Assembly: GCA_003520455.1 (NCBI GenBank)
Contig: DOUV01000681.1
Location: 1-23,341, forward strand
Direction of reading: 5' to 3'
Origin: Chloroflexota bacterium
Lineage (GTDB): Bacteria > Chloroflexota > Anaerolineae > Ardenticatenales > Ardenticatenaceae
Length of the DNA: 23,341 nt
The notes below the pieces were generated by a model, which searched no databases, had not been told where the DNA came from, and saw only the letters and a program-made list of their open reading frames with translations. Shown in pieces: positions 2,723-21,829 of the stretch; the first letter of the stretch is position 1, and every line of letters begins with the position of its first letter. Made by a program: the position numbers and the translations under genes.

Positions 2723-2727
2723 TCACT

Positions 2728-2807
2728 TTGATACTTTTCCCCGTCCGATTGATACCTTTTCGCTTGAGTCCTCCCTAGACACCATGGTAGGGTAGACGCA
2801 TTGATAC
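2728..2807 (+). promoter_or_regulatory. Phased TTGATAC direct repeats, leader copy A
   Basis: TTGATAC occurs at 2728-2734, 2749-2755 and 2801-2807, a spacing of 21 and 52 bp, close to two and five turns of B-DNA. The first two sit inside a longer similarity, TTGATAC[C/T]TTTT. The 21 bp spacing recurs in copies B (10617 and 10638, the second as TTGATCC) and C (16566 and 16587). This is the pattern of a direct-repeat operator. A TTGACA at 2812-2817 could be a -35 element, but no convincing -10 is visible and it is not kept in B and C. The role is inferred. Confidence 0.45.
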
Positions 2808-3032
2808 CCCCTTGACAATGAGTAGCTGTCTTTTCCGTCCTCATAGACCCACCCCCGGAAGATGATGGTTGCTTCGTTTCACCTTCCGGCCTTACCCAAC
2901 AAAGAGCTTGTGCTCACCTCCGTGTTCCTCATAGTTTCCATGCCGTCTTGTACGAGATAGTTGCCCTTTCGGTACCGATTCGAACAAGTTGAGAGCAGAA
3001 CTTCTCCTCTTCAATTGTCTTGGCCCTGGCAG

Positions 3033-3194
3033 TCTGTCGAAGAAACCAGTTTTCTCAGACTTTGGCAGTTTTCGAGAGCAACTTTACGAGCAAATCAGGC
3101 CCACAATGAGAGTAGAGACGACCCGGCGGGTCGTCTCTACTGCCGGCAATAATGCTGCTTGAAACTCCCGAAGTCTCTCTCGTAAGCAGCTAGC
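3033..3194. repeat. Insertion with perfect palindrome (3111-3141), only in leader A
   Basis: Compared with leaders B and C, copy A has about 160 extra bases between CCTGGCAG and GTGCAATCGAAG. Inside lies AGTAGAGACGACCCG (3111-3125), one G, and its exact reverse complement (3127-3141). There is no ORF of note. It looks like a small palindromic repeat or non-autonomous element inserted in the leader, or a piece lost from the ancestor of B and C. Confidence 0.5.
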
Positions 3195-3223
3195 AGTGCA
3201 ATCGAAGATCAGATCGAACGGCG

Positions 3224-3439
3224 ATGACCCAAGCAGCCCAGCAGGATCTCACCTCCCACATCCTGCAGTTGGCGCAGTCGCTCTCTGCCTACCGGCGGCT
3301 GGATACGGAGGAATTGGACGGGCTCACACGCCGCTTGGCGGTATTGAAGCGCGAGGGGCTGGCCTCGAGTCGGACTCGACAAATGCAAACCAGGACGGAG
3401 GAGGGCCATGAGCGCGACATGACAAGCAGAAGTCAGTGA
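3224..3439 (+). CDS. Small conserved leader ORF A (71 aa), unknown function
   Basis: I do not recognise a family. The 71-residue product is a paralogue of the ORFs at 10990-11232 and 16939-17094, at the same place in each operon (between leader and Fe-S subunit gene). Shared pattern: QL..SL.A.R, then EL(D)..L.R.LA.LK, then LAS.RT. Charged and Leu residues alternate as in a helical or coiled-coil segment. There is no signal peptide, Cys or membrane helix. No strong ribosome site precedes the ATG. The stop is 36 bases before the start of the Fe-S subunit. It could be a small regulatory protein, an assembly helper for the trio, or a translated leader peptide. Amino-acid conservation across three copies is the main support. 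Confidence 0.6.
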   Translation: MTQAAQQDLTSHILQLAQSLSAYRRLDTEELDGLTRRLAVLKREGLASSRTRQMQTRTEEGHERDMTSRSQ

Positions 3440-3475
3440 CCAGAGGTTCAAGCGACCCAGAAGGAGAAACCAAAC

Positions 3476-4252
3476 ATGCCAGACAAAGAACAACAGCCGC
3501 TGGAAGAAGGGCAGGCAGGCCCGGTGAAGGACGGCCAAGAAGGAACCCGGCCTGTTCGCCTTTCGCGCCGGGACTTCCTGATTGGGGCCGGATCGGGTGC
3601 CGTCGTCACGGGTGCCGCCGCCGCCGGCTACATCGCGTTGACCCCCGCGAAGCAGGTGGAGGTCGTCAAGGAAGTTCCCAAGGAAGTCGTCAAAGAAGTC
3701 GAAGTTGTGAAGGAGGTCACCAAGGAAGTCCCCGTCGAGGTGGTCAAGGCAGAACAACTGCCCGCCACTATGCGCCGCGTGACCCTCAATATCAATGATG
3801 TGGACTATGAGGTGGTGACCGAGGTGCGCGCGAGCCTGTGGGAGGTCATGACCTACAAGCTGGGCATGACAGGCGCCAACCTGGGCTGCGACCGGGGCTC
3901 GTGTGGTGCCTGCGCCGTGCTCGTGGACGGCCGCGCCGTGAGTAGCTGCACCGTCCTGGCGGCGCGCCTGGGGCGCGGACAAAAGATTCTCACCATCGAG
4001 GGCCTGAGTAAGGGTACCCGGCTGGAAGACCTCCACCCTATCCAACAGGTCTTTTGGGAAACAGGTGGTGCCCAGTGTGGCTTCTGCACACGAGGGATCA
4101 TCATGTCTACCTATGCCCTGCTGTCAAATAACCAGAACCCCACCGAGGACGACATCCGTGAAGCCCTGGCTGGTAACATGTGCCGCTGCGGCAACTACCC
4201 TAAGATTTACGATTCGGTCTTCGCTGCCGCCAAAGAACTACGCGGGGCATAG
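3476..4252 (+). CDS. Tat-exported 2x[2Fe-2S] small subunit, XDH/CODH family (trio 1)
   Basis: This 258-residue subunit begins with a twin-arginine signal, SRRDFLIG (30-37), and an Ala/Gly-rich hydrophobic stretch to about residue 55. A Val/Lys/Glu repeat (61-91, units like KEVPKEVVKEV) then acts as a spacer. The enzyme part has a plant-type ferredoxin domain with Cys138, Cys143, Cys146 and Cys158, and an all-helical [2Fe-2S] domain with Cys201, Cys204, Cys236 and Cys238 (CGFC and CRCGNY motifs). All eight cluster ligands are present. Such subunits pass electrons from the Mo site to FAD. AAGGAG at 3461-3466 sets the start. No signal-peptidase AxA site is obvious after the hydrophobic stretch, so it may stay as a membrane anchor. 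It is followed by its large and medium subunits. Confidence 0.93.
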   Translation: MPDKEQQPLEEGQAGPVKDGQEGTRPVRLSRRDFLIGAGSGAVVTGAAAAGYIALTPAKQVEVVKEVPKEVVKEVEVVKEVTKEVPVEVVKAEQLPATMRRVTLNINDVDYEVVTEVRASLWEVMTYKLGMTGANLGCDRGSCGACAVLVDGRAVSSCTVLAARLGRGQKILTIEGLSKGTRLEDLHPIQQVFWETGGAQCGFCTRGIIMSTYALLSNNQNPTEDDIREALAGNMCRCGNYPKIYDSVFAAAKELRGA

Positions 4253-4282
4253 CGGAGTGAAAGGCCAAAGGAGGTAATAGCA

Positions 4283-6784
4283 GTGAGTACCAAAGGACAT
4301 GTGGACGTCTGGCGTGTCTTGCTCAAACCGGATTATGCGGCGCACCTCACCGACGGCCAGTGGCGCGAGCTCGCGAATGATCCTGACTGGCGGGAGGCAG
4401 AGGTAGAGTTTCCTCAATTGATGGACGAACTCTACGCCCGATTTGGAAGTAAGGTTCCCGGCTATGGGACCGGCTCTTCCGGCGCTGCCAACCCGTCGCT
4501 TGCGGTCGATGAGCTCTCAGTCCTGGGCAAAGGACACCGGCACGTACAAGGGATGGGAGTTGTCACGGGCGTCGGCAAATACGCGGTGAATCTGACCGTG
4601 TCCGACATGCTGTACATGAAGACGCTACGCAGCCCCCACCCCCGTGCCCTCGTGAAAGCCATCGACACCAGCAAGGCTGAGGCGCTTCGCGGTGTTGCGA
4701 TGATCTTGCACCGTTTTAACTTGCCCGAAGAGTACCAGGATTCGCGCCTGGAAGGCGGTCCCAAACCGCGCTTCCTCTTCGACGAGGAAGTCACCCAAGT
4801 CGGGGCGCCTGTCGCGGCAGTGGCCGCCGAGTCGGAGCACATCGCCGACGAGGCCATTCACTTGATTGACGTGGAGTACGAAGTGTTGCCGGCCGTGACG
4901 AACTTCCTGGATGGGATCAAGCCAGGCGCGCCCAAGCTATGGGACAACGAGTACGATGGCACGATTCTCGACATCAGTGAGCCGCTCGTGCGGGGCGATC
5001 CGGACGCCGGCATGAAGGAAGCTGGCGCGGTGGTGGACGCTATCAGCACCCGCTCGACCGAGCAGAATGCACCCCTCGAGCTCACCAGCGGCATTTGCTG
5101 GTGGGAAAACGAGCGCCTGACCTGGTACTGGACCGCGCGACATGCCCATGGAGAGCGTGCCCGGATGGCCCGGGCCCTCAAGTTGCCCTCGAGCCGGGTG
5201 CGGGTAATCCAGACCGGCTACCTGGGCGGCTCTTACGGCTCTCATCGAAATGGCGACGTCAGCGAGGTTCACGCAGCGATACTGGCGAAGCTCACCGGCA
5301 AGCCGGTACGGGCGACGGCCACCCGGTCCGAGGACTTCATCACCCGGACGGTTCGAGCCGCGGTACACACAGAGGGGAAGCTGGGGGTCAACCGCGACGG
5401 CGCATTCGTCGCTGCAACGTATAAACTCATAAGCGACACGGGCGCCGGCTCCAGCAATCGCTCCCCCGGTGCCTGGATCGGCTTGGAGACCCTCTACAAC
5501 ATCCCCAACCTGCGCCTGGAGGGCATCGGCGTTTACACCAACAACGTCAGGTCCGGCAGCTATCGCTGCGTCAGCCACCCCTACGCCACCCTGGCGCAGG
5601 AAACCCTGGTGGACAAGGCAGCCTATGCCGTCGGCATGAACCCGCTGGAGATTCGTCTCAAGAACGTCAACGAGGTGGGCCATCCGGATACGGGCAAACC
5701 ATACAGCAACCCCGGCATTCGCGATTGTCTGACCCAGGCGGCCGAGCGTATCAGCTGGGAGACGAAGTGGCATCCCGCCGGAGCCAAAGAAGTGCGGCCT
5801 GGCGTGTTCCACGGCATCGGCATGGCAGCCCACGCCTGTAGCCACGGCGCGGGCGGTCACCCTTCGACCGGCGTGGTGATAGTCAACCCAGACGGGACAG
5901 TCAACGTTGTCTCAGGTGCTGCCGAGGTCGGCGGAGGACAGCGGACGGTGATGGCGATGATTGCCGCTGAGACATTGGGCATCCCCTACGAACAGGTGGG
6001 CATCGCGCCTGAAATAGACACCGACTACACCAGCGACACGGGCGTCACAGCCGGCAGCCGGCAGACCAACAGCGGCGGTTGGGGGGTCTACGAGGCGGCC
6101 CTGGATGCCCGCCGCCAATTGCTGGAAGGGGCCGTCCAGAAGTTCACCGCTGACGCCAGGAAAGACGGACGAACAATCGAAGTCACGCCCGAGGCGTTGG
6201 ACATCCGGGATGGTTTTGTCTTTTTCAAGGATGATCCGGAGACCAAGATTCCCGTCGCAGATGCCGTGGAAGCCGTCGTACCAAGGACGCCGGTCATCGG
6301 GCGTGGGGCCCATTTCCACCCGCCGACGTGGGAACGGTTGGCCTTTGCTGCCCACGCTGCCGAGGTCGAGGTAGACACCGTGACCGGCTCAGTCTCGGTC
6401 CTGCGGTACGTCGCTGCCCACGACGTCGGCCGTGCCATGAATCCTCTGGGACTTGAGCAGCAGATTCAGGGTGGGGTGACCATGGGCATCAGTGCCGCCC
6501 TCTCCGAGGGATTGGTCAACGACAAAGCAACGGGGCTGCCACTCACAGACAACATCCTTGAGTACAAGGCGTTGACGATCAAAGACGCACCACGTAACGT
6601 CGAAGCCATCTTCGTAGAACATGCCAAGGAGTATGGGGTCTTCGGCGCTCACGGCATTGGTGAACCACCTATTGCTGTGGCGCCGCCGACCATTGCTAAC
6701 GCCATCTACAACGCGATCGGCGTGTGGATCACCAGCCTGCCGATTACCCGAGACAAGATCCTCGCTGCCCTAGAAGCTGCCTAG
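4283..6784 (+). CDS. Molybdopterin-binding large subunit, XDH/CODH family (trio 1)
   Basis: An 833-residue catalytic subunit without its own signal, expected to be exported together with the Tat-bearing small subunit. The conserved fold begins near residue 79 (SVLGKGHRHVQG). The first ~75 residues are an extension not present in the other two large subunits here. Mo-site motifs: GGSYGS (315-320), the substrate loop SYRCVSHP (426-433) with Cys429, EVGGGQ (548-553) in place of the usual GQG, AGSRQTNSGG further on, and GIGEPP with the catalytic Glu794. The Arg-Cys loop resembles the AYxCSFR loop of form I CO dehydrogenase in the position of Cys, though the rest differs. A GTG start follows AGGAGGT (4269-4275) with normal spacing. 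Substrate unknown; aldehyde, N-heterocycle or CO-like chemistry are all open. Confidence 0.93.
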   Translation: MSTKGHVDVWRVLLKPDYAAHLTDGQWRELANDPDWREAEVEFPQLMDELYARFGSKVPGYGTGSSGAANPSLAVDELSVLGKGHRHVQGMGVVTGVGKYAVNLTVSDMLYMKTLRSPHPRALVKAIDTSKAEALRGVAMILHRFNLPEEYQDSRLEGGPKPRFLFDEEVTQVGAPVAAVAAESEHIADEAIHLIDVEYEVLPAVTNFLDGIKPGAPKLWDNEYDGTILDISEPLVRGDPDAGMKEAGAVVDAISTRSTEQNAPLELTSGICWWENERLTWYWTARHAHGERARMARALKLPSSRVRVIQTGYLGGSYGSHRNGDVSEVHAAILAKLTGKPVRATATRSEDFITRTVRAAVHTEGKLGVNRDGAFVAATYKLISDTGAGSSNRSPGAWIGLETLYNIPNLRLEGIGVYTNNVRSGSYRCVSHPYATLAQETLVDKAAYAVGMNPLEIRLKNVNEVGHPDTGKPYSNPGIRDCLTQAAERISWETKWHPAGAKEVRPGVFHGIGMAAHACSHGAGGHPSTGVVIVNPDGTVNVVSGAAEVGGGQRTVMAMIAAETLGIPYEQVGIAPEIDTDYTSDTGVTAGSRQTNSGGWGVYEAALDARRQLLEGAVQKFTADARKDGRTIEVTPEALDIRDGFVFFKDDPETKIPVADAVEAVVPRTPVIGRGAHFHPPTWERLAFAAHAAEVEVDTVTGSVSVLRYVAAHDVGRAMNPLGLEQQIQGGVTMGISAALSEGLVNDKATGLPLTDNILEYKALTIKDAPRNVEAIFVEHAKEYGVFGAHGIGEPPIAVAPPTIANAIYNAIGVWITSLPITRDKILAALEAA

Positions 6785-6813
6785 GAGAGGCTGAGTGAAG
6801 GAGGTTATCAGCA

Positions 6814-7806: not shown

Positions 7807-7825
7807 CTGTGGATCTCGTTTCGCG

Positions 7826-7871
7826 GGGGTTGACAGGGTCACACAGGGACGCCGGTCACCCTGTCAACCCC
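7826..7871 (+). terminator. Stem-loop after trio 1
   Basis: GGGGTTGACAGGGT (7826-7839) pairs perfectly with ACCCTGTCAACCCC (7858-7871) around an 18-base loop. It starts about 20 bases after the medium-subunit stop. There is no T run, so it may be a weak terminator, an RNA-stabilising hairpin or a palindromic repeat. Confidence 0.5.
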
Positions 7872-7933: not shown

Positions 7934-8791
7934 ATGTCCCCTGTAGACGAAACCCGTCTTCTCGAGACGGCGATGCGTGCGGCCCGAGCCGGGGGGCAAC
8001 TGGCCCTCGCCCGTCTTGGGGCGCCAGGCTATCAAAAGTGGAAGGGGCCTCGCGACCTGGTCACCGGGGCCGTCTTAGACATCCAGGAACGCATTGTAGA
8101 GGTCATCCGCCAGGATTTCCCGGATCACCACTGCCTGGCGGAAGAGGGCCAGGCGCTTCAAGAGCAGGATGCGGACCCCTTATGGATCATTGACCCGGTG
8201 GACGGAAGCCTTAATTTCTTTCAAGGCATCCCGTCGTTTTCGATCTGCGTGGGCTATCGCGAAGCGGGAATCTATAGGGTTGGTGTGGTCTACGATCCCT
8301 GCCGGGATGAACTCTTTCACGCCGTGTTTGGTCGTGGCGCCTATCTGAATGACCGTCGGATTCACGCGGCTCTCTACGCGGAAGGGCAGGACGTTGTGAA
8401 CGTTGACGGCGCCATGATCGGGACCGACTGGCCGGGGAGCGTAGGTGAACGGAAAGTCGCACTGCTACTCGCCCGGATTTTGGGCAATGAAGCTCTCCAT
8501 CTCTGGGTGCTGGGTTCCCCAGCCCTCGGGTTGTGTTACGTGGCGACCGGACGTCTGCACGCCTACTATCATCTCCAGCTAAACCTCTGGGACGTGGCGG
8601 CAGCCGCCGTCATCCTTGGGGAAGCGGGCGGCCTTCTGGCCGACATCACTGGGGGTTCGTGGCTTCACAGTGAAGGAGGATACCTGGGCACCAGTAGCGA
8701 TCTCGTTCACGACGCAATGCTCGAAATCATCAAGCCGATTCTCCGGCACCAGGGCGTGTTCCCCGCAAGTCTCGCTGGCGTTCATGGTTGA
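7934..8791 (+). CDS. Inositol monophosphatase-family phosphatase
   Basis: A 285-residue Li-sensitive phosphatase fold. The metal-binding motifs are EEG (70-72), WIIDPVDGSLNF (84-95) with Asp87 and Asp90, and the late LWDVAAAAVILGEAGG (Trp219, Asp220). The usual DGT is DGS here, a mild change. Family members hydrolyse inositol 1-phosphate, fructose 1,6-bisphosphate, or 3'-phosphoadenosine 5'-phosphate (CysQ type); the sequence alone does not choose. The start follows AAAGG at 7923-7927. The gene stops 14 bases before the cytochrome c start, so it is probably cotranscribed with it and yqeB. Why a sugar or nucleotide phosphatase is in a molybdenum hydroxylase cluster is unclear. It may be a passenger, or may act on a substrate or cofactor precursor. 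Confidence 0.85.
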   Translation: MSPVDETRLLETAMRAARAGGQLALARLGAPGYQKWKGPRDLVTGAVLDIQERIVEVIRQDFPDHHCLAEEGQALQEQDADPLWIIDPVDGSLNFFQGIPSFSICVGYREAGIYRVGVVYDPCRDELFHAVFGRGAYLNDRRIHAALYAEGQDVVNVDGAMIGTDWPGSVGERKVALLLARILGNEALHLWVLGSPALGLCYVATGRLHAYYHLQLNLWDVAAAAVILGEAGGLLADITGGSWLHSEGGYLGTSSDLVHDAMLEIIKPILRHQGVFPASLAGVHG

Positions 8792-8805: not shown

Positions 8806-9612
8806 ATGATGAAACCTGTGACCCTGGCGGTCATCTTGCTGGCGGTCTTGGGATGCGCGACGGAAGCTGCGTCGCCGAGACCGCCGACGGCAACCGCTGT
8901 CAGGATCTCGATCGTGGCAACTCCCTCGCCGACCCGGTGGTTCGTTTCTTCCACCATGACGGCGACCCCGGAGCCCACCCTGATTACCAGTTCTCCCACG
9001 CCGCCGGCATCGACCCCCGTACCCGACGCCCACTCCCAGTTACCGACCGCCGAGGCGGAAATCGCCAGTCGTCACAGCCAGGCCCCACCACAGGCTACGC
9101 CTGTTGCTCCTCAAGAGCAGGTGGAGGAAGGCCAATTCCTCTTTTACGCCCTGGGGTGTTTCTACTGCCATGGGGTAAAGGCCGAAGGAGCGGTGGGTCC
9201 CAGGCTTGCTCGCACAAGTATATCGTTGGACAAGGTAATCAGCCAGGTCTACCAGCCGGAAGACGAAATGCCAGCATTCAGCAAAGAACGCGTCAGTGAG
9301 CGTGACTTAGCCGCCATCTACGCCTACCTGCATAGTCTAGACCCATTGGGGCCACGTCCCACGATCACCGCCGACAGTCCCGACAGCGCGGCAGGGGCAA
9401 CCCTCTATCGATACTTTGGCTGCTTCGGTTGCCACGGCTCCCAGGGGGAAGGCAAATTCGGACCACCCCTCGCCGGCATTGCATTGAGTTTCAAGGAAAT
9501 GCGCGCCCGGGTGCGAGAACCGAAGCAGCCCATGCCGCCTTTTGGTCCCGAGTATGTCAGCGATGAGGAACTCGCTCACATCTATGCTTTCCTGCAAAGC
9601 CTCGCGCAGTGA
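8806..9612 (+). CDS. Diheme c-type cytochrome, lipoprotein
   Basis: A 268-residue exported protein. A short hydrophobic signal ends in the lipobox VLGC (Cys17). A Thr/Pro/Ser-rich linker of about 75 residues follows, then two similar cytochrome c domains. Haem-binding CxxCH motifs are CFYCH (118-122) and CFGCH (206-210). Probable axial methionines lie in EDEMPAF and QPMPPFG, each followed by a V(S)[ED]...[IY]YA[YF]L helix. The two domains look like an internal duplication. It is the natural acceptor for an exported hydroxylase and would hand electrons to the respiratory chain. The start is uncertain: ATG 8806 or 8809 gives a good signal peptide, and a TTG at 8788 overlapping the upstream stop is possible. 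No strong ribosome site is seen, so translation may be coupled. Confidence 0.88.
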   Translation: MMKPVTLAVILLAVLGCATEAASPRPPTATAVRISIVATPSPTRWFVSSTMTATPEPTLITSSPTPPASTPVPDAHSQLPTAEAEIASRHSQAPPQATPVAPQEQVEEGQFLFYALGCFYCHGVKAEGAVGPRLARTSISLDKVISQVYQPEDEMPAFSKERVSERDLAAIYAYLHSLDPLGPRPTITADSPDSAAGATLYRYFGCFGCHGSQGEGKFGPPLAGIALSFKEMRARVREPKQPMPPFGPEYVSDEELAHIYAFLQSLAQ

Positions 9613-10493
9613 CAGACAGCTGCGTCGATACCGAGGCCCAGGATCTGGAACGAAGAGGGTGGAATGTGACAGCATACCAGACGCGGCCGGTGAATAACCC
9701 ACTGAACGCAGTGACGGTGGTGGTGAAAGGAGGCGGGGACCTGGCCACCGGCGTCGTGCATCGCCTGCACCGCGCCGGTATGCGGGTGGTTGTCAACGAA
9801 TTGCCGCAACCGCTGGTCATCCGCCGCCCAGTGTCTGTCGCCTCGGCCATCTTCGAGGGCGAAACCGAAGTGGAAGGCATCCGCGCTCGGCTGGTCGAGC
9901 CCGGCCAGGTCGAGGAGACGTGGCGGGGAGGGGCGATCCCTGTCTTGATCGATCCCGAAGCTCGAATTGTGCATCGCTGCCGACCCCAGGTTCTGGTAGA
10001 TGCCATCATGGCCAAGCGCAACACCGGTACCGGCATCGAGGACGCATCACTCGTCATCGCCCTGGGTCCGGGCTTTACGGCCGGGGTGGATTGCCACGCC
10101 GTCATTGAAACCAACCGCGGCCACCACCTGGGGCGCGTCATCCTGACGGGGAGCGCCGAGCCGAATATGGGGACCCCCGCTACCGTCGACGGCCACACCG
10201 AGGAGCGAGTCCTCCGGGCACCCTGTCCGGGCGTCTTCCACGGATACTGCCGGATCGGTGAGCGGGTCAGCGCCGGTCAGACTGTGGCTCACGTCAACGG
10301 CTCGGCCGTGCACGCTCAGATCGGCGGGGTGCTGCGGGGATTGCTGGCCGACGGCGTCCCGACCACGACCGGGATGAAGGTGGGCGATATCGACCCCAGG
10401 GGGCGGGTGGAATACTGCTTCACCATCTCGGACAAGGCCCGAGCGGTTGGTGGCGGTGTACTGGAAGCGATCCTCTGCCTGTTGTGGAAATGA
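9609..10493 (+). CDS. yqeB: YqeB (EF2563 family) selenium-dependent molybdenum hydroxylase protein
   Basis: This 294-residue product shows the YqeB features: VVVKGGGDLATGVVHRL (37-53), LPQPLVIRRPVSVASAIFEG (65-84), and ALGPGFTAGVDCHAVIETNRG (151-171). A lipoyl-like CPGVFHGYCRIGERVSAGQTV segment lies near 206-226. By comparative genomics the family is tied to molybdenum hydroxylases carrying a labile selenium atom, together with YqeC and SelD. Its biochemistry is not settled. A GTG at 9609 overlaps the cytochrome stop by four bases (GTGA). A GTG at 9666, behind GAGGG, is an alternative and would remove 19 poorly conserved residues. The last codons abut a remnant of xdhC. It suggests that at least one of these enzymes uses selenium in place of the sulfido ligand. 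Confidence 0.85.
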   Translation: MTDSCVDTEAQDLERRGWNVTAYQTRPVNNPLNAVTVVVKGGGDLATGVVHRLHRAGMRVVVNELPQPLVIRRPVSVASAIFEGETEVEGIRARLVEPGQVEETWRGGAIPVLIDPEARIVHRCRPQVLVDAIMAKRNTGTGIEDASLVIALGPGFTAGVDCHAVIETNRGHHLGRVILTGSAEPNMGTPATVDGHTEERVLRAPCPGVFHGYCRIGERVSAGQTVAHVNGSAVHAQIGGVLRGLLADGVPTTTGMKVGDIDPRGRVEYCFTISDKARAVGGGVLEAILCLLWK

Positions 10494-10496: not shown

Positions 10497-10560
10497 GCAG
10501 CCTGCAGCCGGCCGGGCTGGATCTGGCACCGAGACGCCAGACGAGAGCGCCCTCGCCCTA
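10497..10560 (+). pseudogene. xdhC tail remnant
   Basis: Directly after yqeB is a short piece matching the C-terminal coding region of xdhC. GCCGGGCTGGATCTGG followed by ACCGAGACGCCAGACGAGA corresponds to the GLDLGAETPEE region, with a small deletion that breaks the frame. The same broken tail ends the larger pseudogene at 16459-16510. It marks the left part of the 570 bp direct repeat and shows that a copy of xdhC, or only its end, once preceded leader B. Confidence 0.65.
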
Positions 10561-11079
10561 GCGCCCTGGCACTCCTGACCCAGCGCCCGCCCGTTCACGT
10601 GACGGGGCGCGTTGTATTGATACTTTTCCCCGCCAAGTTGATCCTTTTTTACCTTGGGTCGTTCCAAGATACCGTGATAGACTACAAGCCACGATACTGA
10701 TACCCCTTGGCATTAGCACTTGTCTTCGCTGTCCCCACACGTCCAATTGCGGAAGATGATGCCTGCTGCGTATCGTTTTCTCTGTTCCTAACCAAATAAC
10801 TCACGCTCACTTCCCTATTCCTCAAAGTATCCGCGCCGCCGTCTTGTACGAGATAGTTGCCCTTGCGGTACTGATTCGAACAAGTCGATAGCAGAACTTC
10901 TCTTACACAATTGTCTTGGCTCCAGGAAGTGCAATCGAAGATACGAATCCGCTTCACGGCGAGTGTAGACTGCGGCGGATTGGACGCCCATGCTCAAAGC
11001 AGCCGAGACGGGTTTCGCCGGCCGCATCTCGCAGTTGGAGCGGTCGCTCGGCGCCCATCGCCAGGTGCATGTCTGGGAA
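10510..11079 (+). repeat. 570 bp direct repeat, copy B (xdhC tail, leader, start of small ORF)
   Basis: Positions 10510-11079 align without gaps to 16459-17028 (offset 5949). Comparing by eye I count about 15 mismatches, so roughly 97% identity. The repeat contains the xdhC tail, a hairpin at about 10586-10610 (around CGTTCACGTGACG), the TTGATAC repeats (10617, 10638, 10697), the conserved leader core and the first 30 codons of the small ORF. Identity falls sharply after that. It covers the stretch 10494-10989, which otherwise holds no convincing + strand gene. Confidence 0.9.
10837..10920 (+). promoter_or_regulatory. Leader core, copy B
   Basis: The 84-base block from CGCCGTCTTG to TTGTCTTGGC is about 89% identical to 2941-3024 (copy A), against clearly lower identity on both sides, and nearly identical to 16786-16869 (copy C). 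It lies 70 bases before the small ORF. This level of conservation between otherwise diverged operons points to a function: protein-binding site, structured 5' UTR, or a coding frame on the other strand. No known riboswitch was recognised. Confidence 0.5.
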
Positions 11080-11232
11080 TTGGACGAGTTAGAGCGTCAA
11101 CTGGCAGAGTTGAAAAGCCAGGTGCTGGCCTCACATCGGACTCAGCAAACGAAGACCGAGACCGAGACGGAGGTGGAGGATGAACTGAACGTGACGACCC
11201 GGAGATTCGCAAGCGAAAGTCAAGCCATATAG
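10990..11232 (+). CDS. Small conserved leader ORF B (80 aa), unknown function
   Basis: This is the longest of the three related small ORFs. The product has a Leu-rich amphipathic stretch (ISQLERSLGAHRQ, then ELDELERQLAELKSQ) that suits a short coiled coil, then a Thr/Glu-rich polar tail (KTETETEVEDE). It has no Cys, signal or membrane segment. Residues 1-30 are almost identical to ORF C because they lie in the 570 bp repeat; residues after 30 are closer in pattern to ORF A. Its stop lies 16 bases before the ATG of the Fe-S subunit, with that gene's AAGGAGG (11234-11240) in between, so the two may be translationally linked. No strong ribosome site is seen for this ORF itself. Confidence 0.6.
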   Translation: MLKAAETGFAGRISQLERSLGAHRQVHVWELDELERQLAELKSQVLASHRTQQTKTETETEVEDELNVTTRRFASESQAI

Positions 11233-15451: not shown

Positions 15452-16510
15452 ATGAAGAGAGAGTCAGCTGAGCAGGAACGTTCCTACACAACGACTTCTC
15501 ACGTTGATCCGCTCCATCGGCTCCATCCCCCGCCACGGGCCGCCTGGATGGTCGTGCGCGCCGACGGCTCGTGGGTCGGTACCATCGGGAGCAGGAGCAT
15601 GCAGCACAAGACCCTCCAGGATACCTGGGCCGCCCTGGCGGCCGACAGGCCGCACCTGGTCCAGTATCCCCTGATCGGAAGGCCCCCAGAGCCTGGGCCT
15701 CTGCGGCGGCACCCAGGAAGTGTTCATCGACGTCCTCACCCCAGCCCAGCGCAACGGACGCGGGGCTGACAGCGCCGAGCTCCTCGAGCACCTGGCGGCG
15801 GCCTGCGCGGCCGGCGAGCCGGCGGTCCTCATCACGGTCATCCGCTCATCCGAAGGGTTGGTCTGGCAGGTGGGTGAGAAGGCCTTGCTCCGCTGAGATG
15901 GCTCTCTCGCTGGAACGCTGGGCACCGGCGACCTGGAGTCACAAGTGCGGGCGGCGGCCCGGGAGGCCCTACACCACAATCCCTCCCTGCGCCTGGGGTA
16001 TCGCCTAGATGAGGAGACTCTCACCCCCTGGACAGCTTCAGCCGGGAACGAGTAGAGCTCTTCGCAGACCTCGCCCAGCCGCAGCCGGAACTCGTGATCA
16101 CCAGGGCCGGCCACATCGGGCTGGCCCTGGCCGGGATGGGACGCATCCTGGGCATGCGCGTGGTCGTGGTCGACGACCGGCTCGAGTGGTTCCAGCGCTT
16201 TCCCGAGGCCGATGAAGCCATCATCGTGGCCTATGATGCTGCCATGGAGGCTCTGGCCCCGATCCCGGTCACGCTCGCGCGCTCGAGCCACGTCGTGATC
16301 ACCACTTGGGGCTGGGATGAACCGGCTCTCGAGCAGGTCGCCAGCTCCCCGGCCGCCTACATCGGCCTGGTGGCCAGCCGTCGCAAGGCCAAGCAGATCT
16401 TCGAAGACCTGGTGGCGGGCGTGGTGCCGGCGGAGGACCTGGCGCAGGTGCAGCTGGCGGCCGGGCTGGATCTGGCACCGAGACGCCAGACGAGAGTGCC
16501 CTCGCCCTAG
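15452..16510 (+). pseudogene. xdhC: Decayed xdhC
   Basis: The DNA follows the intact xdhC (1486-2664) over most of its length, from the IRSIGS region to the GLDL region. It is broken by several small indels (near 15540, 15690 and 16020), an in-frame TGA at 15894-15896 where the intact gene has His-Asp, and a final frameshift leading to the stop at 16508-16510. The longest readable part, 16094-16510, still shows GHIGLALAGMG, TTWGWDEPAL and YIGLVASRRK, but the Rossmann GAG is changed to RAG. The last ~30 codons of the family are lost. It sits before leader C as the intact gene sits before leader A, which supports a duplication of an xdhC-leader-trio unit. Confidence 0.9.
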
Positions 16511-17028
16511 CGCCCTGGCACTCCTGACCCAGCGCCCGCCCGTTCACGTGACGGGGCGCGTTGTATTGATACTTTTCCCCGCCAAGTTGATCCTTTTTTA
16601 CCTTGGGTCGTTCCAAGACACCGTGATAGACTACAAGCCACGATACTGATACCCCTTGGCATTAGCACTTGCCTTCGCTGTCCCCACACGTCCAATTGCG
16701 GAAGATGATGCCTGCTGCGTATCGTCTTCCCTGTTCCTAACCAAATAACTCACGCTCACTTCCCTATTCCTCAACGTATCCACGCCGCCGTCTTGTACGA
16801 GATAGTCGCCCTTGCGGTACTGATTCGAACAAGTCGATAGCAGAACTTCTCTTACACAATTGTCTTGGCTCCAGGAAGTGCAATCGAAGATACGAATCCG
16901 CTTCACGGCGAGTGTAGACTGCGTCGGATCGCACGCCCATGCCCAAAGCAGCCGAGACGGGTTTCGCCGGCCGCATCTCGCAGTTGGAGCGGTCGCTCGG
17001 CGCCTATCGCCAGGTGCATGCCTGGGAA
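16459..17028 (+). repeat. 570 bp direct repeat, copy C
   Basis: Ungapped partner of 10510-11079. It starts in the xdhC pseudogene tail, covers the whole leader (TTGATAC at 16566, TTGATCC at 16587, CTGATAC at 16646) and ends about 30 codons into small ORF C. The stretch 16511-16938 holds no other convincing gene. Because the enzyme genes on either side are far more diverged, the near identity means recent duplication or gene conversion of the regulatory cassette. Confidence 0.9.
16786..16869 (+). promoter_or_regulatory. Leader core, copy C
   Basis: The 84-base core corresponds to 10837-10920 with one change (AGATAGTTGC to AGATAGTCGC), and to 2941-3024 with about ten. It lies 69 bases before small ORF C. 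Same possible roles as in the other copies. Confidence 0.5.
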
Positions 17029-17094
17029 GTGGAGGAGCCTGAGCGCCGCTTGGGAGAACCGGAAAGCGAGGTGTTGGCCTCGAGTCGCATCTGA
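16939..17094 (+). CDS. Small conserved leader ORF C (51 aa, truncated)
   Basis: Third paralogue of the small leader ORFs. The first 30 residues nearly match ORF B (MPKAAETGFAGRISQLERSL). The middle keeps the pattern LG.(P).SEVLASSR, and a TGA at 17092-17094 ends it where A and B continue with a polar tail. Two prolines replace Leu in the helical part (EEPERRLGEPESE), which would weaken a coiled coil. The gene therefore looks partly decayed. About 95 bases separate it from the Fe-S subunit, more than in the other operons. Confidence 0.5.
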   Translation: MPKAAETGFAGRISQLERSLGAYRQVHAWEVEEPERRLGEPESEVLASSRI

Positions 17095-17189
17095 GAACGG
17101 CGACCAGGATGGAGGTGGGTTATTACAGCAATGCAGTGACCGAAGAGTCCACACGTAGAAGCCCAAGACATGCTGAAGGAGAAAAACAC

Positions 17190-17954
17190 ATGGAGAACAA
17201 GGAGAAACAGCCATTAGAGGAAGGGCAAAGAGGCCTTGCCGAGGGCGACGAGGAAGGGGCCCGGCCGGTCCAAGTTTCGCGCCGGGGCTTCCTCATTGGG
17301 GCCGGGGCGGGCGTCGTCGCCACAGGCGCGGCGGCTGCGGGCTATATTACGCTGACTCCCCCGAAACAGGTGGAAGTCATCAAGGAAGTCCCCAAGGAAG
17401 TCATCAAGGAAGTTGAAGTCGTCAAGGAAGTCGTCAAGGAAGTGCCAGTACCCGCGGAGGCCGTGAGCGCGGAGCCGTCCACGAGGCTGAGGACGGTGAC
17501 CCTGAATGTGAACGGGCAGGACTTCGAGCTAGAGGTGGAAGCTCATTGGACCCTGGCGAGGGTGCTGAGAGATTCACTCGCGTTGACAGGTACCAAGATG
17601 GCCTGTGATCACGGGATGTGCGGCGCATGCACTATTCTCGTCAACGGCACGCCGGTCTACGCCTGCATGCAACTGGCGATCAGGGAGGCCGGGAAGGAGA
17701 TTCTTACCGTCGAGGGCCTGGCACAAGAGGGCAAGCTGCACCCACTCCAGGCAGCCTTTATCGAGGGCTATGGGACCCAGTGCGGGTATTGCGCGTCAGG
17801 ATTCCTGGTCACAGCTAAGGCCCTCCTGGATGCAAATCCCGATCCGACCGTCGGGGACATCAAGGAGGCTCTCGGCGGCAACCTCTGCCGGTGCGGCTCG
17901 TACCACGAGGTCATCACGTCCGTTTTGGCTGCAGCGAAAGCGATGCGGGCATAG
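17190..17954 (+). CDS. Tat-exported 2x[2Fe-2S] small subunit (trio 3)
   Basis: A 254-residue subunit whose ATG at 17190 follows AAGGAGA (17176-17182); an in-frame ATG at 17109 has no such site. The N-terminus closely resembles trio 1: QPLEEGQ, then SRRGFLIG (30-37), an Ala-rich stretch, and the Val/Lys/Glu spacer (about 61-88). In the Tat motif Asp is replaced by Gly, which the pathway tolerates. Cluster ligands are Cys139, Cys144, Cys147, Cys159 (ferredoxin domain) and Cys198, Cys201, Cys233, Cys235 (helical domain). All eight are present. It is followed 15 bases later by its large subunit. Confidence 0.93.
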   Translation: MENKEKQPLEEGQRGLAEGDEEGARPVQVSRRGFLIGAGAGVVATGAAAAGYITLTPPKQVEVIKEVPKEVIKEVEVVKEVVKEVPVPAEAVSAEPSTRLRTVTLNVNGQDFELEVEAHWTLARVLRDSLALTGTKMACDHGMCGACTILVNGTPVYACMQLAIREAGKEILTVEGLAQEGKLHPLQAAFIEGYGTQCGYCASGFLVTAKALLDANPDPTVGDIKEALGGNLCRCGSYHEVITSVLAAAKAMRA

Positions 17955-17969
17955 CAAGGGAGGAATGCC

Positions 17970-20195
17970 ATGGCTGAGTTGAACGTCGTGGGGAAACCAG
18001 CCCCACGGAAAGATGGATATGCTAAGGTCACGGGTACCGCAACGTTCTTTGCGGACGTGCAGCTCCCCGGGATGCTGGAGGCCAAGCTTCTTCTGAGCCC
18101 TCACCCCCACGCCAGGATTGTCAGCATAGACACCAGCAAGGCAGAAGCCCTTCCCGGGGTCTACGCGGTACTCACCTATAAGAACATCCCCGATATCTAC
18201 GCACACACTTCTTCTCAGCATAAGACGGAAAGGCGCATCCTGGACTCGACACTGCGCTTTGTAGGGCAGGAAGTGGCAGCCGTAGCCGCAGAGGATGACG
18301 ATGTGGCAGAAGAGGCTCTGGATCTCATCGAGGTGAAGTATGAGCTTTTGCCTCACGTATTGGATCCTGAAGAGGCGATGCGGTCTGGGGCGCCGCAGTT
18401 ACACCAGCACGCACCGAATAATATCGTTGGTGGAAAGCCGACCATTTACGAGCGGGGCGATATTGAGCAAGGCTTTCAGGAAGCGGACCAAATCTTCGAA
18501 CAAACGTACCGCACGCAACGTATCCACAACGTGGTTTGGGAGCCCCGAGGCGCCACGGCGATGTGGGAAGGAGACACCTTGATCCTCTGGACGTCGACGC
18601 AAGGGCACTACGGGGTTCAGCAAGACGTAGCCGAGGATCTGGGGCTACCGGTCAGCAAGGTCAGGGTCATCGCAGAGCATGTCGGTGGTGGCTTCGGCGG
18701 TCAGACCATGGGCTATCCTCATCAGACCATTGCCGCACTGCTGGCCCGGAAGACAGGCAGACCTGTCAGGCTACGCTTCAGCCGCCGGGACGACTTCTTG
18801 CTCATGCATGGGCGATGGCCGACGATCCAGACCGTCAAAATGGGCGTGAAGAATGACGGCACCTTGACAGCCATTTCCGCCAAACAGATTACGGACGGTG
18901 GTGCCTACCTGAAGGCCAGCCCCACGAACATGTTTGGCGTCTACCGGGACGGCCCCAATTGCCCGCACATGAGATTAGAAGGATATGGCGTATACACCAA
19001 CAGTTTTACCAGCGGCAACATGCGTATGGTAGGGGGGCCAATGGGCCAATGGTCCCTCGACAGCATCATGGACGAGGCCTGCGACGCCATGGGGTGGGAC
19101 AAGGTTGATTTTCTCCTGAAAAATCTGTCCTTTGACGTGCACTCCGAGTCGGGTTTGCCTCGGTCCAGCACTGGTCTGCGCGACGCGATCTTGCAAGCCG
19201 CCGAGCGGTTTGGGTGGTACGAGAAGAAGAAAACTTATCCACTGATCAATGGTAGCAAACGGCGGGGCATTGGTGTTGGCTTTGTCGTTTCAATGGGGGG
19301 ATATGTCCCGTTTTATAGCAACGCCGCAGTCAGGGTCCATCAAGATGGATCCGTGACAGTGCTCCATGGAGCCACTGACATCGGACAGGGCGCTAAGACG
19401 GCCACGGCGCAGATCGCGGCCGAAGCATTGGGAGTGCGCTACGAAGACGTGGAAGTCATCCATGGTGATACTTTCACAAGCCCGCCAGGTCCACCCGCTT
19501 CTGCCCACCGTACTCTGATAATTGGTGGGCCGGTTGTTCTGGAGGCCGCCCTAGATGCCCGGCGACAGCTCCTAGAGATCGCGGCGGAGAAACTAGAGGT
19601 CAAGCCGGAGGATCTGGATACGGCTGAAGGGCGCATTTTCGTCAAGGATGCCTCAGACAAAGGCATGACGTTCGGCGAAGCCGTGCGCGCTCGGGAGTAC
19701 ACATGGGTCGTCGGCAACGGGCACTTCAAGCGGCAGACCCAGTATGCAAGCTTTGACGGTGGCGTCGTGTTCGCTGAGGTGGAAGTGGACATCGAGACCG
19801 GACAGGCGAACATTGTCAAGCTGGTCCAGTCGCATGATGTCGGTAAGGCAATTAACCCGCTCATTCTGCAAGGCCAGGCCTTTGGCGCGCTCATACAAGC
19901 AGCGGGTTATGTCCTGAGTGAGGAAATGCACGCCGACGCAGCGACCGGGATCTACCTGAATTCGAATATTCACGAGTTTAAGATGCTAACCATCCGTGAT
20001 ATCCCTGATATGGAGCTGATTCTGGTAGAACCGGGAGACGCAGTTGGACCTTTCGGCGCTCACGGCGCGGTGGAGAGCTTCATCCAACCCCCGGTGCCTG
20101 CCATTGGCAGCGCCGTGTGCCAAGCCATCGGAGTGCGCATCAGGGACCTGCCCATCACATCCAATAAGATCCTGAAAGCGCTGAAGCAGGCCTAA
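17970..20195 (+). CDS. Molybdopterin-binding large subunit (trio 3)
   Basis: A 741-residue catalytic subunit, the shortest and most standard of the three. Motifs: GGGFGGQ (239-245), the substrate loop GNMRMVGGP (349-357) with Arg352, the normal DIGQG with Gln473, and GAHGAVES with the catalytic Glu702. The loop GNMRMVGGP is closer in shape to the MRAPGE-type loop of periplasmic aldehyde oxidoreductases than to XDH. GGGAGGA precedes the ATG. It lacks a signal and should be co-exported with its small subunit. Aldehyde or isoquinoline-type substrates are possible, but the substrate cannot be read from the sequence. Confidence 0.93.
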   Translation: MAELNVVGKPAPRKDGYAKVTGTATFFADVQLPGMLEAKLLLSPHPHARIVSIDTSKAEALPGVYAVLTYKNIPDIYAHTSSQHKTERRILDSTLRFVGQEVAAVAAEDDDVAEEALDLIEVKYELLPHVLDPEEAMRSGAPQLHQHAPNNIVGGKPTIYERGDIEQGFQEADQIFEQTYRTQRIHNVVWEPRGATAMWEGDTLILWTSTQGHYGVQQDVAEDLGLPVSKVRVIAEHVGGGFGGQTMGYPHQTIAALLARKTGRPVRLRFSRRDDFLLMHGRWPTIQTVKMGVKNDGTLTAISAKQITDGGAYLKASPTNMFGVYRDGPNCPHMRLEGYGVYTNSFTSGNMRMVGGPMGQWSLDSIMDEACDAMGWDKVDFLLKNLSFDVHSESGLPRSSTGLRDAILQAAERFGWYEKKKTYPLINGSKRRGIGVGFVVSMGGYVPFYSNAAVRVHQDGSVTVLHGATDIGQGAKTATAQIAAEALGVRYEDVEVIHGDTFTSPPGPPASAHRTLIIGGPVVLEAALDARRQLLEIAAEKLEVKPEDLDTAEGRIFVKDASDKGMTFGEAVRAREYTWVVGNGHFKRQTQYASFDGGVVFAEVEVDIETGQANIVKLVQSHDVGKAINPLILQGQAFGALIQAAGYVLSEEMHADAATGIYLNSNIHEFKMLTIRDIPDMELILVEPGDAVGPFGAHGAVESFIQPPVPAIGSAVCQAIGVRIRDLPITSNKILKALKQA

Positions 20196-20216
20196 AACCA
20201 TAAGGAGGCCAGAATC

Positions 20217-21212
20217 ATGAAGGCTTTTGAATACGTCGCTGCCTCAAGCGTGGAGGAGGCCATCTCGGTGCTCAGCCGGCACGATGGCAACGCCAGGCCT
20301 ATTGCAGGTGGGAGCGACCTGCTAGGAATGGTCAAGGATAAAATCCAGGGACCGGCGCTCGCGATACCGAAGGTGGTGGTTGATCTTCGGACGATCCCTG
20401 GCCTGGACGCTATCAAGGAGGATGGTGGGGGCCTTCGTATCGGCGCTCTGGTGACTCTCAGTGCGCTCGAAAGTTCGGAGGTGATCAAGAGCAAATTTCC
20501 AGGCCTGGTTCAGGCAGGCTGGGAAGTGGCTGCACCCCAAATTCGCAACGTGGGCACGGTAGGGGGGAACCTGGCTCAAAGACCGCGCTGTTGGTACTTC
20601 CGCGATGGGCTTTTTGGCGACTGCTACAAGCGCGGCGGGGACTTTTGCTACGCGGTCACGGGCGAGAATCAATACCACTCTATCCTCGAGGGTGAGTTGT
20701 GTTACTTCGTTCACCCCTCAGACCTGGCTCCCATGTTGATCGCTCTGGACAGTACGCTCACTACAGCGGGACCCAACGGAGAACGCACTGTTCCTGTAGA
20801 GAAATTCTTTACCGGCCCGCGCGAGGACGTCCTGCGGGAGAATATTCTGCAGCCCAACGAGATCATCACCGAGATTCAGGTCCCCGGAACGTGGGCAGGT
20901 ACACGCCAGACATTCCTGAAGCTCAAGCTGAGGGAATCGTTCGACTTTGCTGTGGTCAGTGTTGCGGTGGCGCTCAAAGGACCGGCGAGAGGTGCCATCG
21001 AGGATGCCCGCATCGTGCTGGGGGGTGTGGCGCCCACGCCGTATCGCGCCACGAGGGTGGAAGACTTGCTCAAGGGCAAGGTCCTCGATGAAACCGTAGC
21101 CCAGCAGGCAGGACAGGCTGCTGTGCTGAACGCTCGGCCAATGAGCCTCAATGCGTACAAAGTGGATTTGACCGAGACCATGGTCAAGCGCGCGCTGATG
21201 TCCATCGCCTAG
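20217..21212 (+). CDS. FAD-binding medium subunit with [4Fe-4S] loop (trio 3)
   Basis: A 331-residue CoxM/PaoB-type subunit. FAD motifs are IAGGSDLLGM near residues 32-41 and GTVGGNLAQR. The cluster ligands Cys125, Cys136, Cys144 and Cys162 are kept. The fifth Cys seen in trios 1 and 2 (YHC) is Ser here, which shows that it is not a ligand. AAGGAGG at 20202-20208 sets the ATG. The C-terminal domain is complete (VLGGVAPTPYRA and the ARPMSLNAYKVD ending). It is followed 20 bases later by a cytochrome c gene, its likely electron acceptor. Confidence 0.93.
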   Translation: MKAFEYVAASSVEEAISVLSRHDGNARPIAGGSDLLGMVKDKIQGPALAIPKVVVDLRTIPGLDAIKEDGGGLRIGALVTLSALESSEVIKSKFPGLVQAGWEVAAPQIRNVGTVGGNLAQRPRCWYFRDGLFGDCYKRGGDFCYAVTGENQYHSILEGELCYFVHPSDLAPMLIALDSTLTTAGPNGERTVPVEKFFTGPREDVLRENILQPNEIITEIQVPGTWAGTRQTFLKLKLRESFDFAVVSVAVALKGPARGAIEDARIVLGGVAPTPYRATRVEDLLKGKVLDETVAQQAGQAAVLNARPMSLNAYKVDLTETMVKRALMSIA

Positions 21213-21232
21213 TCTACGGAGTCGAAGACAAG

Positions 21233-21829
21233 GTGATAGGAGGACACAAAGTTAGCGCTACTGTAATCCTGCTGGTGGGAGTGTTCTGGCTCGGTGGTTG
21301 CAGCGGGGCCAGGTTGTCCTCATTACCCACTCAGCCTACTCGGGAGCCCGAAGGCGCCAGCGTGGCTTCTACCGCCACCCTGGCGCCTACCACTCTAGTA
21401 TTCCGCTTGACTGCAACCCCCAGAGTAACCACTGTTACCCTTACCATGACTCCGGTTCCTCCCACGACCACCGGCTCCCCATCGCCACCCCCGAGTCGGG
21501 CAATGGCCAGCCCTACCCCACCGCCAACGGCGTCACCCAGTGTCACCAGCACCCTGCACAATGAACATGGATCCCACTCTTTGTCTCCCGAGCAAGCTAG
21601 AGGGCAACGTCTCTTCGAGACGCATTGCATCGGGTGCCATGGCACGTATGGACAGGGAGGTGGCGAGGCGCCTTCCATAGCGAAGACAGGTAGGACGTTA
21701 GAGGAAGTCCATTATCAAATACGGCGCCCGTTACGCTTCATGACGATGTTTGCAAAAGACCAGCTTAGTGATGAAGAGATAGGCTATATCTATGCTTATC
21801 TCCAGGTTCTCGAGATACCACAAAGGTGA
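21233..21829 (+). CDS. Monoheme c-type cytochrome, lipoprotein
   Basis: A 198-residue protein with a hydrophobic signal ending in the lipobox LGGC (Cys23), a long Thr/Pro/Ser linker (about 30-110), and one cytochrome c domain. The haem motif is CIGCH (132-136), and the distal Met is probably in RFMTMFAKDQLSDEE. A final IGYIYAYLQVL helix matches the end of each domain of the diheme cytochrome at 8806-9612. The GTG at 21233 is the only in-frame start upstream of the signal; AGGAGG lies just inside the gene (21238-21243), so the true start is not certain. As the last gene of operon 3 it is the likely partner of the third hydroxylase outside the membrane. Confidence 0.85.
   Translation: MIGGHKVSATVILLVGVFWLGGCSGARLSSLPTQPTREPEGASVASTATLAPTTLVFRLTATPRVTTVTLTMTPVPPTTTGSPSPPPSRAMASPTPPPTASPSVTSTLHNEHGSHSLSPEQARGQRLFETHCIGCHGTYGQGGGEAPSIAKTGRTLEEVHYQIRRPLRFMTMFAKDQLSDEEIGYIYAYLQVLEIPQR

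What the first reader, a model, noticed from the sequence alone, without database searches (positions are those of the whole stretch)
2723..21829. Three tandem exported molybdenum-hydroxylase operons built on one repeated plan
Each unit reads: xdhC sequence, leader, small ORF, Tat-Fe-S subunit, Mo subunit, FAD/[4Fe-4S] subunit. The enzyme parts have diverged strongly, but the 5' cassette has not. The order small-large-medium is the same in all three, and cytochromes c follow units 1 and 3. It looks like an expandable module that puts different catalytic subunits behind a shared expression and export cassette.
Basis: partly seen in the sequence, partly recalled or inferred. Interest (0 to 1): 0.8.

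Follow-up and report, generated by a model that had tools for sequence, protein, structure and literature searches.

The report
Shared export front-end, different enzymes
A stretch of DNA from an uncultured, probably Chloroflexota, bacterium carries three different exported molybdenum enzymes whose front ends (switch region, small helper gene, export tag) have been copied between them by recombination, and related bacteria show the same habit of plugging different enzymes behind one front end.

Summary
The three S-L-M trios are real: Tat-tagged 2x[2Fe-2S] subunit, Mo subunit, FAD/[4Fe-4S] subunit. The description needs correcting. xdhC is intact only before unit 1; it is a pseudogene before unit 3 and a short scrap before unit 2. 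S-L-M order is generic (70 of 80 loci). The enzymes are three old, separate subfamilies (L 39-42% identical), and unit 1 has its own neighbours elsewhere. The 5' parts recombine: units 2 and 3 share 563 bp at 97.7% identity, ending inside the small ORF. S3 is a chimera: its Tat signal and linker match S1 (74%), its Fe-S domain does not (48%), with a sharp border at nt 3740 (0 of 2000 permutations). S2 keeps its own Tat region. In Chloroflexota relatives the Tat leader, and an upstream sensor-kinase/regulator pair, follow the host lineage while the enzyme behind them is of one or another type. The small ORF belongs to an unnamed protein family that also precedes hydrogenases and formate dehydrogenases. 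So 'different enzymes behind a shared front end' is largely right, but the shared part is a mosaic, moves by recombination, and is not specific to molybdenum hydroxylases. The leader DNA itself was found nowhere else.

The parts
229..1236 (+). cytochrome b561-type membrane protein
   Evidence: Pfam PF01292 E 3.3e-6, just under the curated cut-off; a similar gene lies near alpha-type units in relatives
1274..1429 (+). TatA-type translocase component
   Evidence: PF02416, 2.4e-16
1486..2664 (+). xdhC, intact (Mo-cofactor chaperone family)
   Evidence: PF02625 and PF13478
2725..3223 (+). leader 1: TTGATAC repeats at 2728 and 2749 (21 bp apart) and 2801; conserved core 2942-3024 with inverted repeat 2947-2988
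3224..3439 (+). small ORF 1 (71 aa), member of an unnamed helical small-protein family
3476..3739 (+). S1 Tat signal and linker (the recombining part)
   Evidence: change point
3740..4252 (+). S1 Fe-S domains (subfamily here called alpha)
4283..6784 (+). L1, Mo-binding subunit
   Evidence: PF01315, PF02738, PF20256
6814..7806 (+). M1, FAD/[4Fe-4S] subunit
   Evidence: PF00941, PF03450; 67-72% identical to alpha-type M in six genomes
7934..8791 (+). inositol-monophosphatase-family protein
   Evidence: PF00459; also near alpha units in relatives
8806..9612 (+). di-haem c-type cytochrome, lipoprotein-like N-terminus
   Evidence: PF13442; CxxCH twice
9609..10493 (+). yqeB-type maturation protein
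   Evidence: TIGR03309, 346.9 bits against cut-off 220
10509..10600 (+). scrap of the 3' end of the xdhC pseudogene; start of the block shared with unit 3
10601..10989 (+). leader 2 (within block 10509-11071, 97.7% identical to unit 3; inverted repeat 10843-10884)
10990..11232 (+). small ORF 2 (80 aa)
   Evidence: predicted as one long helix
11249..11980 (+). S2, with its own type of Tat region
11985..14360 (+). L2
14385..15374 (+). M2
15505..16560 (+). xdhC pseudogene (frameshifts)
   Evidence: 78% nt identity to the intact xdhC with many indels; PF13478 in the open part 16094-16510
16561..16938 (+). leader 3; inverted repeat 16792-16833
16939..17094 (+). small ORF 3, truncated to 51 aa
   Evidence: listed as P0136
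17190..17453 (+). S3 Tat signal and linker, like S1
17454..17954 (+). S3 Fe-S domains, a different subfamily
17970..20195 (+). L3
20217..21212 (+). M3
21233..21829 (+). mono-haem c-type cytochrome, lipoprotein-like N-terminus
   Evidence: PF13442; one CxxCH

Best explanation
Three PaoABC-like, Tat-exported molybdenum hydroxylases of separate ancestry sit in tandem, and their 5' regions have been exchanged by homologous recombination. A block running from xdhC through the leader and small ORF to the Tat signal and linker was duplicated between unit 1 and unit 3 and fused in frame to the unit-3 Fe-S domain; the unit-3 xdhC copy then decayed. Later a 563-bp piece (xdhC scrap, leader, first part of the small ORF) was copied between units 2 and 3. 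Effect (inferred): the enzymes come under the same switch, and S3 uses the host's own kind of export tag, which carries the whole S-L-M trimer out of the cytoplasm as PaoA does for PaoB and PaoC. The c-type cytochromes after units 1 and 3 probably take the electrons. In related Chloroflexota the same principle works over a longer front end (sensor kinase, LuxR-type regulator, small protein or TatA, Tat leader) that follows the host lineage while the enzyme behind it is of type alpha or beta (my labels). Shown: homology, mosaic edges, tree conflict, pseudogene. Inferred: regulation, export, electron path, direction of copying.
For: S1/S3: part before the Fe-S domain 74%, Fe-S part 48% identical; S1 against the alpha-type L185 shows the reverse, 42% and 74%. 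Trees of 66 Tat-S proteins (quick method): the N part joins S1+S3 (SH-aLRT 99); the C part puts S1 in a 38-row alpha clade (99) and S3 outside it. AU tests: the C part rejects S1+S3 (p 9e-6), L186-L189 (3e-66) and P0013+P0024 (1e-42); the N part rejects the alpha clade (7e-17) and the beta clade (0.003). Change point at S1 residue 89, 0 of 2000 permutations; third-position identity 36/59 in Tat+linker and 62/106 in the open xdhC part, against 64/156 Fe-S, 260/732 L and 139/327 M. Block 10509-11071 differs from unit 3 at 13 of 563 sites. Second case: the beta-type unit of G416 has a kinase 63-64% like those of the alpha units in G001 and G421 but 51% like that of the beta unit in G460, while M and L of the two beta units are 78% and 66% alike; the G460 kinase is 60% like that of the G435 alpha unit. 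In eight genomes chosen for having Tat-S hits, M1 finds a homologue at 67-72% (six) or at 54-55% (two), never both; other hits are at 41% or less. Hitchhiker export of PaoABC: PMC4273604 (passages).
Against: S2 does not fit: its N and C parts both point to P0004 (N-part clade S2+P0004 not rejected, p 0.61), so at most leader and small ORF are shared there; the N-part clade S1+S2+S3 is borderline rejected (p 0.048). The N alignment has only 77 columns and long branches, and S3 is a long branch in the C tree. Tested groups were named after trees were seen. The leader DNA was found in no other genome. No sensor kinase/regulator pair is in the window. The small ORF is truncated in unit 3 and its u1/u2 dN/dS is 0.89, so it may be under little constraint here. 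The window lies in a record without a held genome, probably a metagenome contig, so the u2/u3 repeat could hide an assembly error. Relatives are draft genomes, so a missing enzyme type may be a gap. Nothing is known of expression.
Confidence: 0.75

Rival explanations
1. Plain tandem duplication of one operon followed by faster divergence of the enzyme parts and strong constraint on the 5' part.
For: Same gene order and similar 5' parts in all units.
Against: M1 and L1 are 67-72% and 53-59% like alpha enzymes of other genomes but only 50-52% and 39-40% like M2/M3 and L2/L3, so the split is older than the cluster. In S1 against the alpha-type L185 the Tat part is less conserved than the Fe-S part (42% vs 74%), the reverse of what this rival needs. 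Third-position identity also differs between the two parts.
Confidence: 0.08
2. Convergence: the Tat signal and linker are alike because each host's Tat machinery and cell envelope select for one sequence, with no exchange.
For: Tat leaders look lineage-specific in several lineages; the linker is low-complexity.
Against: Third (mostly silent) positions are also more alike in Tat+linker than in the Fe-S part (36/59 vs 64/156, Fisher p 0.0096); the adjacent pseudogene and non-coding leader are alike too. In G416 and G460 the sensor kinase shows the same pattern.
Confidence: 0.12
3. Assembly artefact: the near-identical u2/u3 block joins pieces that are not neighbours.
For: 563 bp at 97.7% identity in a record with no held genome; the unit-3 proteins P0002 and P0136 are listed with a contig of 8516 bases, so probably a second record breaks off somewhere in or near this region (inference).
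Against: The two copies differ at 13 sites and have different flanks (yqeB vs xdhC pseudogene). The older u1/u3 mosaic does not depend on this block. A small ORF seems to be the neighbour of an S2-like S in another organism too (P0004 and P0124 share the contig length 2579; inference).
Confidence: 0.07
4. The leader is a remnant of a mobile-element end (a resemblance to repeated IS21-type ends, recalled from memory), and its spread is transposition rather than recombination of host DNA.
For: Repeats TTGATAC...TTGAT(A/C)C 21 bp apart; transposase-like ORFs after 21829.
Against: No transposase gene at any leader; the copied blocks run on into xdhC, small ORF and S genes; the inverted repeat is in none of 277 loci. 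The host's own genome could not be searched.
Confidence: 0.05

Closest known systems
E. coli PaoABC periplasmic aldehyde oxidoreductase with its chaperone PaoD
   Same: Heterotrimer with a Tat signal on the small 2x[2Fe-2S] subunit only, a FAD subunit, a Mo subunit, and a dedicated helper (passages of PMC4273604 and PMC3958847; that PaoD is of the XdhC family is recalled). PaoB and PaoC match the M and L profiles.
   Different: Gene order S-L-M here; in paoABCD it is S-M-L-helper (subunit roles, operon from the abstract of PMC3909100 in the listing). Three units in tandem; recombined front ends; small ORF, tatA and cytochromes nearby.
4-hydroxybenzoyl-CoA reductase, aldehyde oxidase (5y6q) and CO dehydrogenase, xanthine oxidase family
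   Same: Fold and cofactor domains of L and M.
   Different: The eight subunits given to NCBIfam (M3 was not) all score under the equivalog cut-offs, so the substrates are unknown. That the four-cysteine insert in M is as in the reductase beta subunit and PaoB is recalled.
Tat-substrate proofreading chaperones such as HybE (others, HyaE and NapD, recalled)
   Same: Small gene next to the gene of a Tat-exported redox subunit (role of HybE from PMC4273604).
   Different: Nine members of the small-ORF family have no Pfam or NCBIfam match at a curated cut-off; small ORF 2 is predicted as a single helix; the family also lies next to non-exported enzymes such as acetyl-CoA synthetase.

Membership tests
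Xanthine oxidase family (molybdenum hydroxylases) | Hammerhead and two Mo-cofactor-binding domains in L; two [2Fe-2S] domains in S; FAD domain in M | tested here: met
   Pfam above cut-offs for L, M and the Fer2_2 domain of S in all three units; eight cysteines in S
Xanthine oxidase family (molybdenum hydroxylases) | Catalytic glutamate near the C-terminus of L | tested here: met
   one aligned invariant E (L1 794; motifs starting at L1 788, L2 746, L3 696); its role is recalled
PaoABC-like exported hydroxylases | Twin-arginine signal on S only | tested here: inconclusive
   RR-x-F at residue 31, 28 and 31 of S1-S3; no signal-peptide predictor was run on S, L or M, and export itself cannot be tested here
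PaoABC-like exported hydroxylases | [4Fe-4S] insert in M | tested here: met
   four conserved cysteines in the RPRCWYFR...C...C...C insert of M1-M3; cluster binding itself not testable
PaoABC equivalog (aldehyde oxidoreductase) | Scores above the equivalog cut-offs for Pao subunits | tested here: not met
   NF041671 257-337 bits against 1180 for L; NF008514 129-164 against 322 for S; it may work like Pao but is not filed as Pao
Selenium-dependent Mo hydroxylases | yqeB maturation gene nearby | tested here: met
   TIGR03309 above cut-off at 9609-10493
Selenium-dependent Mo hydroxylases | Enzyme subunits above the selenium-dependent models' cut-offs | tested here: not met
   TIGR03311, TIGR03312 and TIGR03313 far under cut-off wherever they matched; selenium use stays open
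Known RNA leader or riboswitch | Match to an Rfam family in the leader | tested here: not met
   two matches in the window at E up to 1, both under the gathering score and outside the leaders; folding z-scores near 0

The most novel reading that the evidence does not exclude
Chloroflexota keep a 'socket' for exported molybdenum hydroxylases: a host-lineage front end (sensor kinase, LuxR-type regulator, a new single-helix small protein, TatA, and the Tat signal with its linker) into which different S-L-M 'cartridges' are swapped by recombination at the linker/Fe-S border. The window shows a cell that multiplied the socket to three. The small protein may be a general helper of Tat-exported redox enzymes, as it also precedes hydrogenase and formate dehydrogenase genes.
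Probability: 0.4. Interest if true: 0.75.

Novelty: new variant of a known kind. Interest (0 to 1): 0.58.

Why it matters
Export tags are usually treated as belonging to their enzyme. Here the tag, with its switch region and helper genes, behaves as a separate unit that follows the host while enzymes are exchanged behind it. That would explain how a bacterium puts a newly acquired multi-subunit redox enzyme under its own control and export system in one step, and it can be tested by swapping leaders. It also gives a new small-protein family with a testable role in export or assembly of folded redox enzymes.

Tried and rejected
Leader as structured RNA: Rfam, single-strand folds with z near 0, three-sequence consensus with one compensated and one broken pair; no support. 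Leader as sigma-70 promoter: no consensus site in 2640-3500. Leader in viruses: a 17-mer scan found 6 IMG/VR contigs; the match stops after at most 20 bases and the six share one other sequence context, so they are one unrelated conserved site. Leader in genomes: only matches of 16-34 nt (none in 37); one looked at, L094, lies in an ORF that reads like proC (name recalled). Plasmids and phages: no match. Viral relatives of M: none. I first took the small ORF for an orphan (one database relative); an alignment search overturned this. The expectation that it would be specific to these enzymes was also wrong. A uniform three-unit cassette was rejected because of S2. The rival explanations are not exclusive, so their odds need not add up to one.

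Literature: six full-text searches; their listings showed no paper on exchange of Tat leaders between molybdenum hydroxylases. Only PMC4273604 and PMC3958847 were opened, passages only; other papers were seen as listing with the start of the abstract. Most subscription journals are not in that library.

Rows dropped: P0001, P0002, P0003 and P0050 were left out of the S comparisons (small ORF, copies of window proteins, one fragment). The trees used 66 rows: 3 window, 13 relatives, 3 further loci, and 47 chosen by me from the 117 remaining of the 120 listed S hits (of 7517 matches). In one search the small-ORF u1/u3 and u2/u3 values used a wrong start and are not used. In one search two of the 68 Tat-like S (L034, L059) look false. 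In one search several 'downstream' picks were spurious ORFs or were missed, and were re-read by eye.
Full report
WHAT IS THERE. The window holds a b561-type cytochrome gene, tatA, xdhC, unit 1 (S1-L1-M1), an inositol-monophosphatase-family gene, a di-haem cytochrome c, yqeB, unit 2 (S2-L2-M2), an xdhC pseudogene, unit 3 (S3-L3-M3), a mono-haem cytochrome c and then transposase-like ORFs. No whole genome is held for it. The named relatives among the best 120 S hits are Anaerolineae and Ardenticatenaceae MAGs, and the closest M of unit 1 are in Chloroflexi MAGs, so the host is probably a Chloroflexota bacterium (inference).

THE ENZYMES. All three trios carry the domains of the xanthine oxidase family, a twin-arginine motif and eight cysteines in S, and a four-cysteine insert in M. 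None of the eight subunits given to NCBIfam reaches an equivalog cut-off (M3 was not given), so substrates are unknown. M subunits are 50-56% and L subunits 39-42% identical to each other, while M1 is 67-72% and L1 53-59% identical to alpha-type enzymes elsewhere. S-L-M order is generic: 70 of 80 loci. Of the 72 loci in which an S was found, 68 show a Tat-like motif by pattern, two of them doubtful.

THE 5' REGIONS. xdhC is intact before unit 1, a pseudogene before unit 3 (78% nt identity, many indels), and a ~90-nt scrap before unit 2. Leaders 2 and 3 belong to a block of 563 bp with 13 mismatches (10509-11071 against 16458-17020), after which similarity falls within the small ORF. Leader 1 is 63-72% like the others in the windows before the core, 90% in an 83-nt core, and about 130 nt longer after it. 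The core holds an inverted repeat with arms CTTGTNCGA/TCGNACAAG in all three leaders and in none of 277 loci. Upstream lie TTGATAC-like repeats 21 bp apart. Both may be regulator sites (inference). No Rfam family and no stable fold was found.

S3 IS A CHIMERA. S1 and S3 agree at 74% before the Fe-S domain and at 48% within it; S1 against L185 shows 42% and 74%. A change-point scan puts the border at S1 residue 89, nt 3740 (0 of 2000 permutations; for S1/S2 97 of 1000 and S2/S3 659 of 1000). Third-position identity is alike in Tat+linker (36/59) and the open xdhC part (62/106) and lower in Fe-S (64/156), L (260/732) and M (139/327). This fits one duplicated block from xdhC to the linker. Trees and AU tests agree, with the caveats of few columns, long branches and groups named after the trees. 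S2 does not share this history: its best relative P0004 agrees in both parts (64% and 83%).

BEYOND THE WINDOW. In Chloroflexota relatives the Tat part tends to follow the host lineage. Compared over a 28-residue Tat core and the Fe-S part: P0013 and P0024, both listed with a 10,408,881-base contig of an Ardenticatenaceae MAG, are 86% and 44% alike; L189 and P0024 43% and 73%; L189 and L188 82% and 39%. Not every pair does so: P0025, listed with the same contig, has a Tat core only 50-54% like the other two. In seven loci (L185, L186, L187, L189, L250, L252, L253) a sensor kinase and a LuxR-type regulator lie upstream of S; in five of these TatA or the small ORF was also seen there (Pfam check of the L189 genes). 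The beta-type units of G416 (L189) and G460 (L252) have kinases closest to those of alpha-type units of G001/G421 (63-64%) and G435 (60%), not to each other (51%), although their M and L are 78% and 66% identical. Of the eight genomes examined, six have an alpha-type M and two the other type, none both. This is a sign of enzyme exchange behind a standing front end that does not depend on the window.

THE SMALL ORF. One database relative was found with the single sequence and 22 entries with an alignment, two of them the window's own (P0123, P0136); none has a Pfam assignment. Seven have the same longest-contig length as an exported S listed (P0124/P0004, P0127/P0014, P0132/P0026, P0128/P0079, P0129/P0121, P0142/P0042 and, for unit 3 itself, P0136/P0002); I infer that they are neighbours of S of several subfamilies. 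In 23 of 396 genomes of one class there are 24 matches at E up to 1e-5 (at most 14 candidates scored per genome). Read by eye, the next recognisable gene was a Tat-signal redox protein in 10 of 24 (NiFe hydrogenase small subunit 5, formate dehydrogenase 2, Rieske protein, ferredoxin-like protein, S), a lipoprotein-like cytochrome in 3, and other or unclear genes in the rest; acetyl-CoA synthetase lies next to it in 3 (Pfam check for three loci). Small ORF 2 is predicted as one long helix, mean pLDDT 84.3, pTM 0.46. A role as helper of Tat export or assembly is a guess.

HOW IT PROBABLY WORKS. By analogy with PaoABC, where only PaoA carries the Tat signal and PaoB and PaoC ride along (PMC4273604, passages), each trimer is assembled with its cofactors in the cytoplasm and exported whole, then passes electrons to a c-type cytochrome. 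Copying the front end to another trio gives that trio the same switch and, in unit 3, the same export tag. This is inference from anatomy; nothing was measured.

VERDICT. The enzymes are new members of a known kind. The recombining, largely host-specific front end with a sharp in-gene border, and a new small-protein family, are the interesting part.

Noticed in passing
7934-8791; L185, L186, L187, L188, L197, L250, L253, L078: An inositol-monophosphatase-family gene lies next to or near the M gene of alpha-type units in these eight loci, on the opposite strand there but on the same strand here. It was not seen in some other alpha loci such as L192. A link to the cofactor is possible.
   Followed up: partly
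L240 8774-11782; L264: Formate dehydrogenase genes with a Tat signal are interrupted by one in-frame TGA, probably selenocysteine; a small-ORF relative lies upstream.
   Followed up: partly
9609-10493: yqeB of the selenium-dependent Mo hydroxylase maturation set lies between units 1 and 2; whether any of the three enzymes uses selenium is open.
   Followed up: no
21940-22716 and 22974-23341: A frameshifted transposase-like remnant (by eye) and the start of an ORF with a weak helix-turn-helix match at the window's end, a possible route for rearrangements.
   Followed up: no
4283-4507: L1 has an N-terminal extension of about 75 residues that L2 and L3 lack.
   Followed up: no
13758-13877: L2 has an extra stretch of about 40 residues (DLDDPTTW...YQLPELP) absent from L1 and L3.
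   Followed up: no
L245, L260, L261, L267, L277: The small-ORF family lies before the Tat-tagged small subunit of NiFe hydrogenases in five Chloroflexota loci, in L261 after a LuxR-type regulator.
   Followed up: partly
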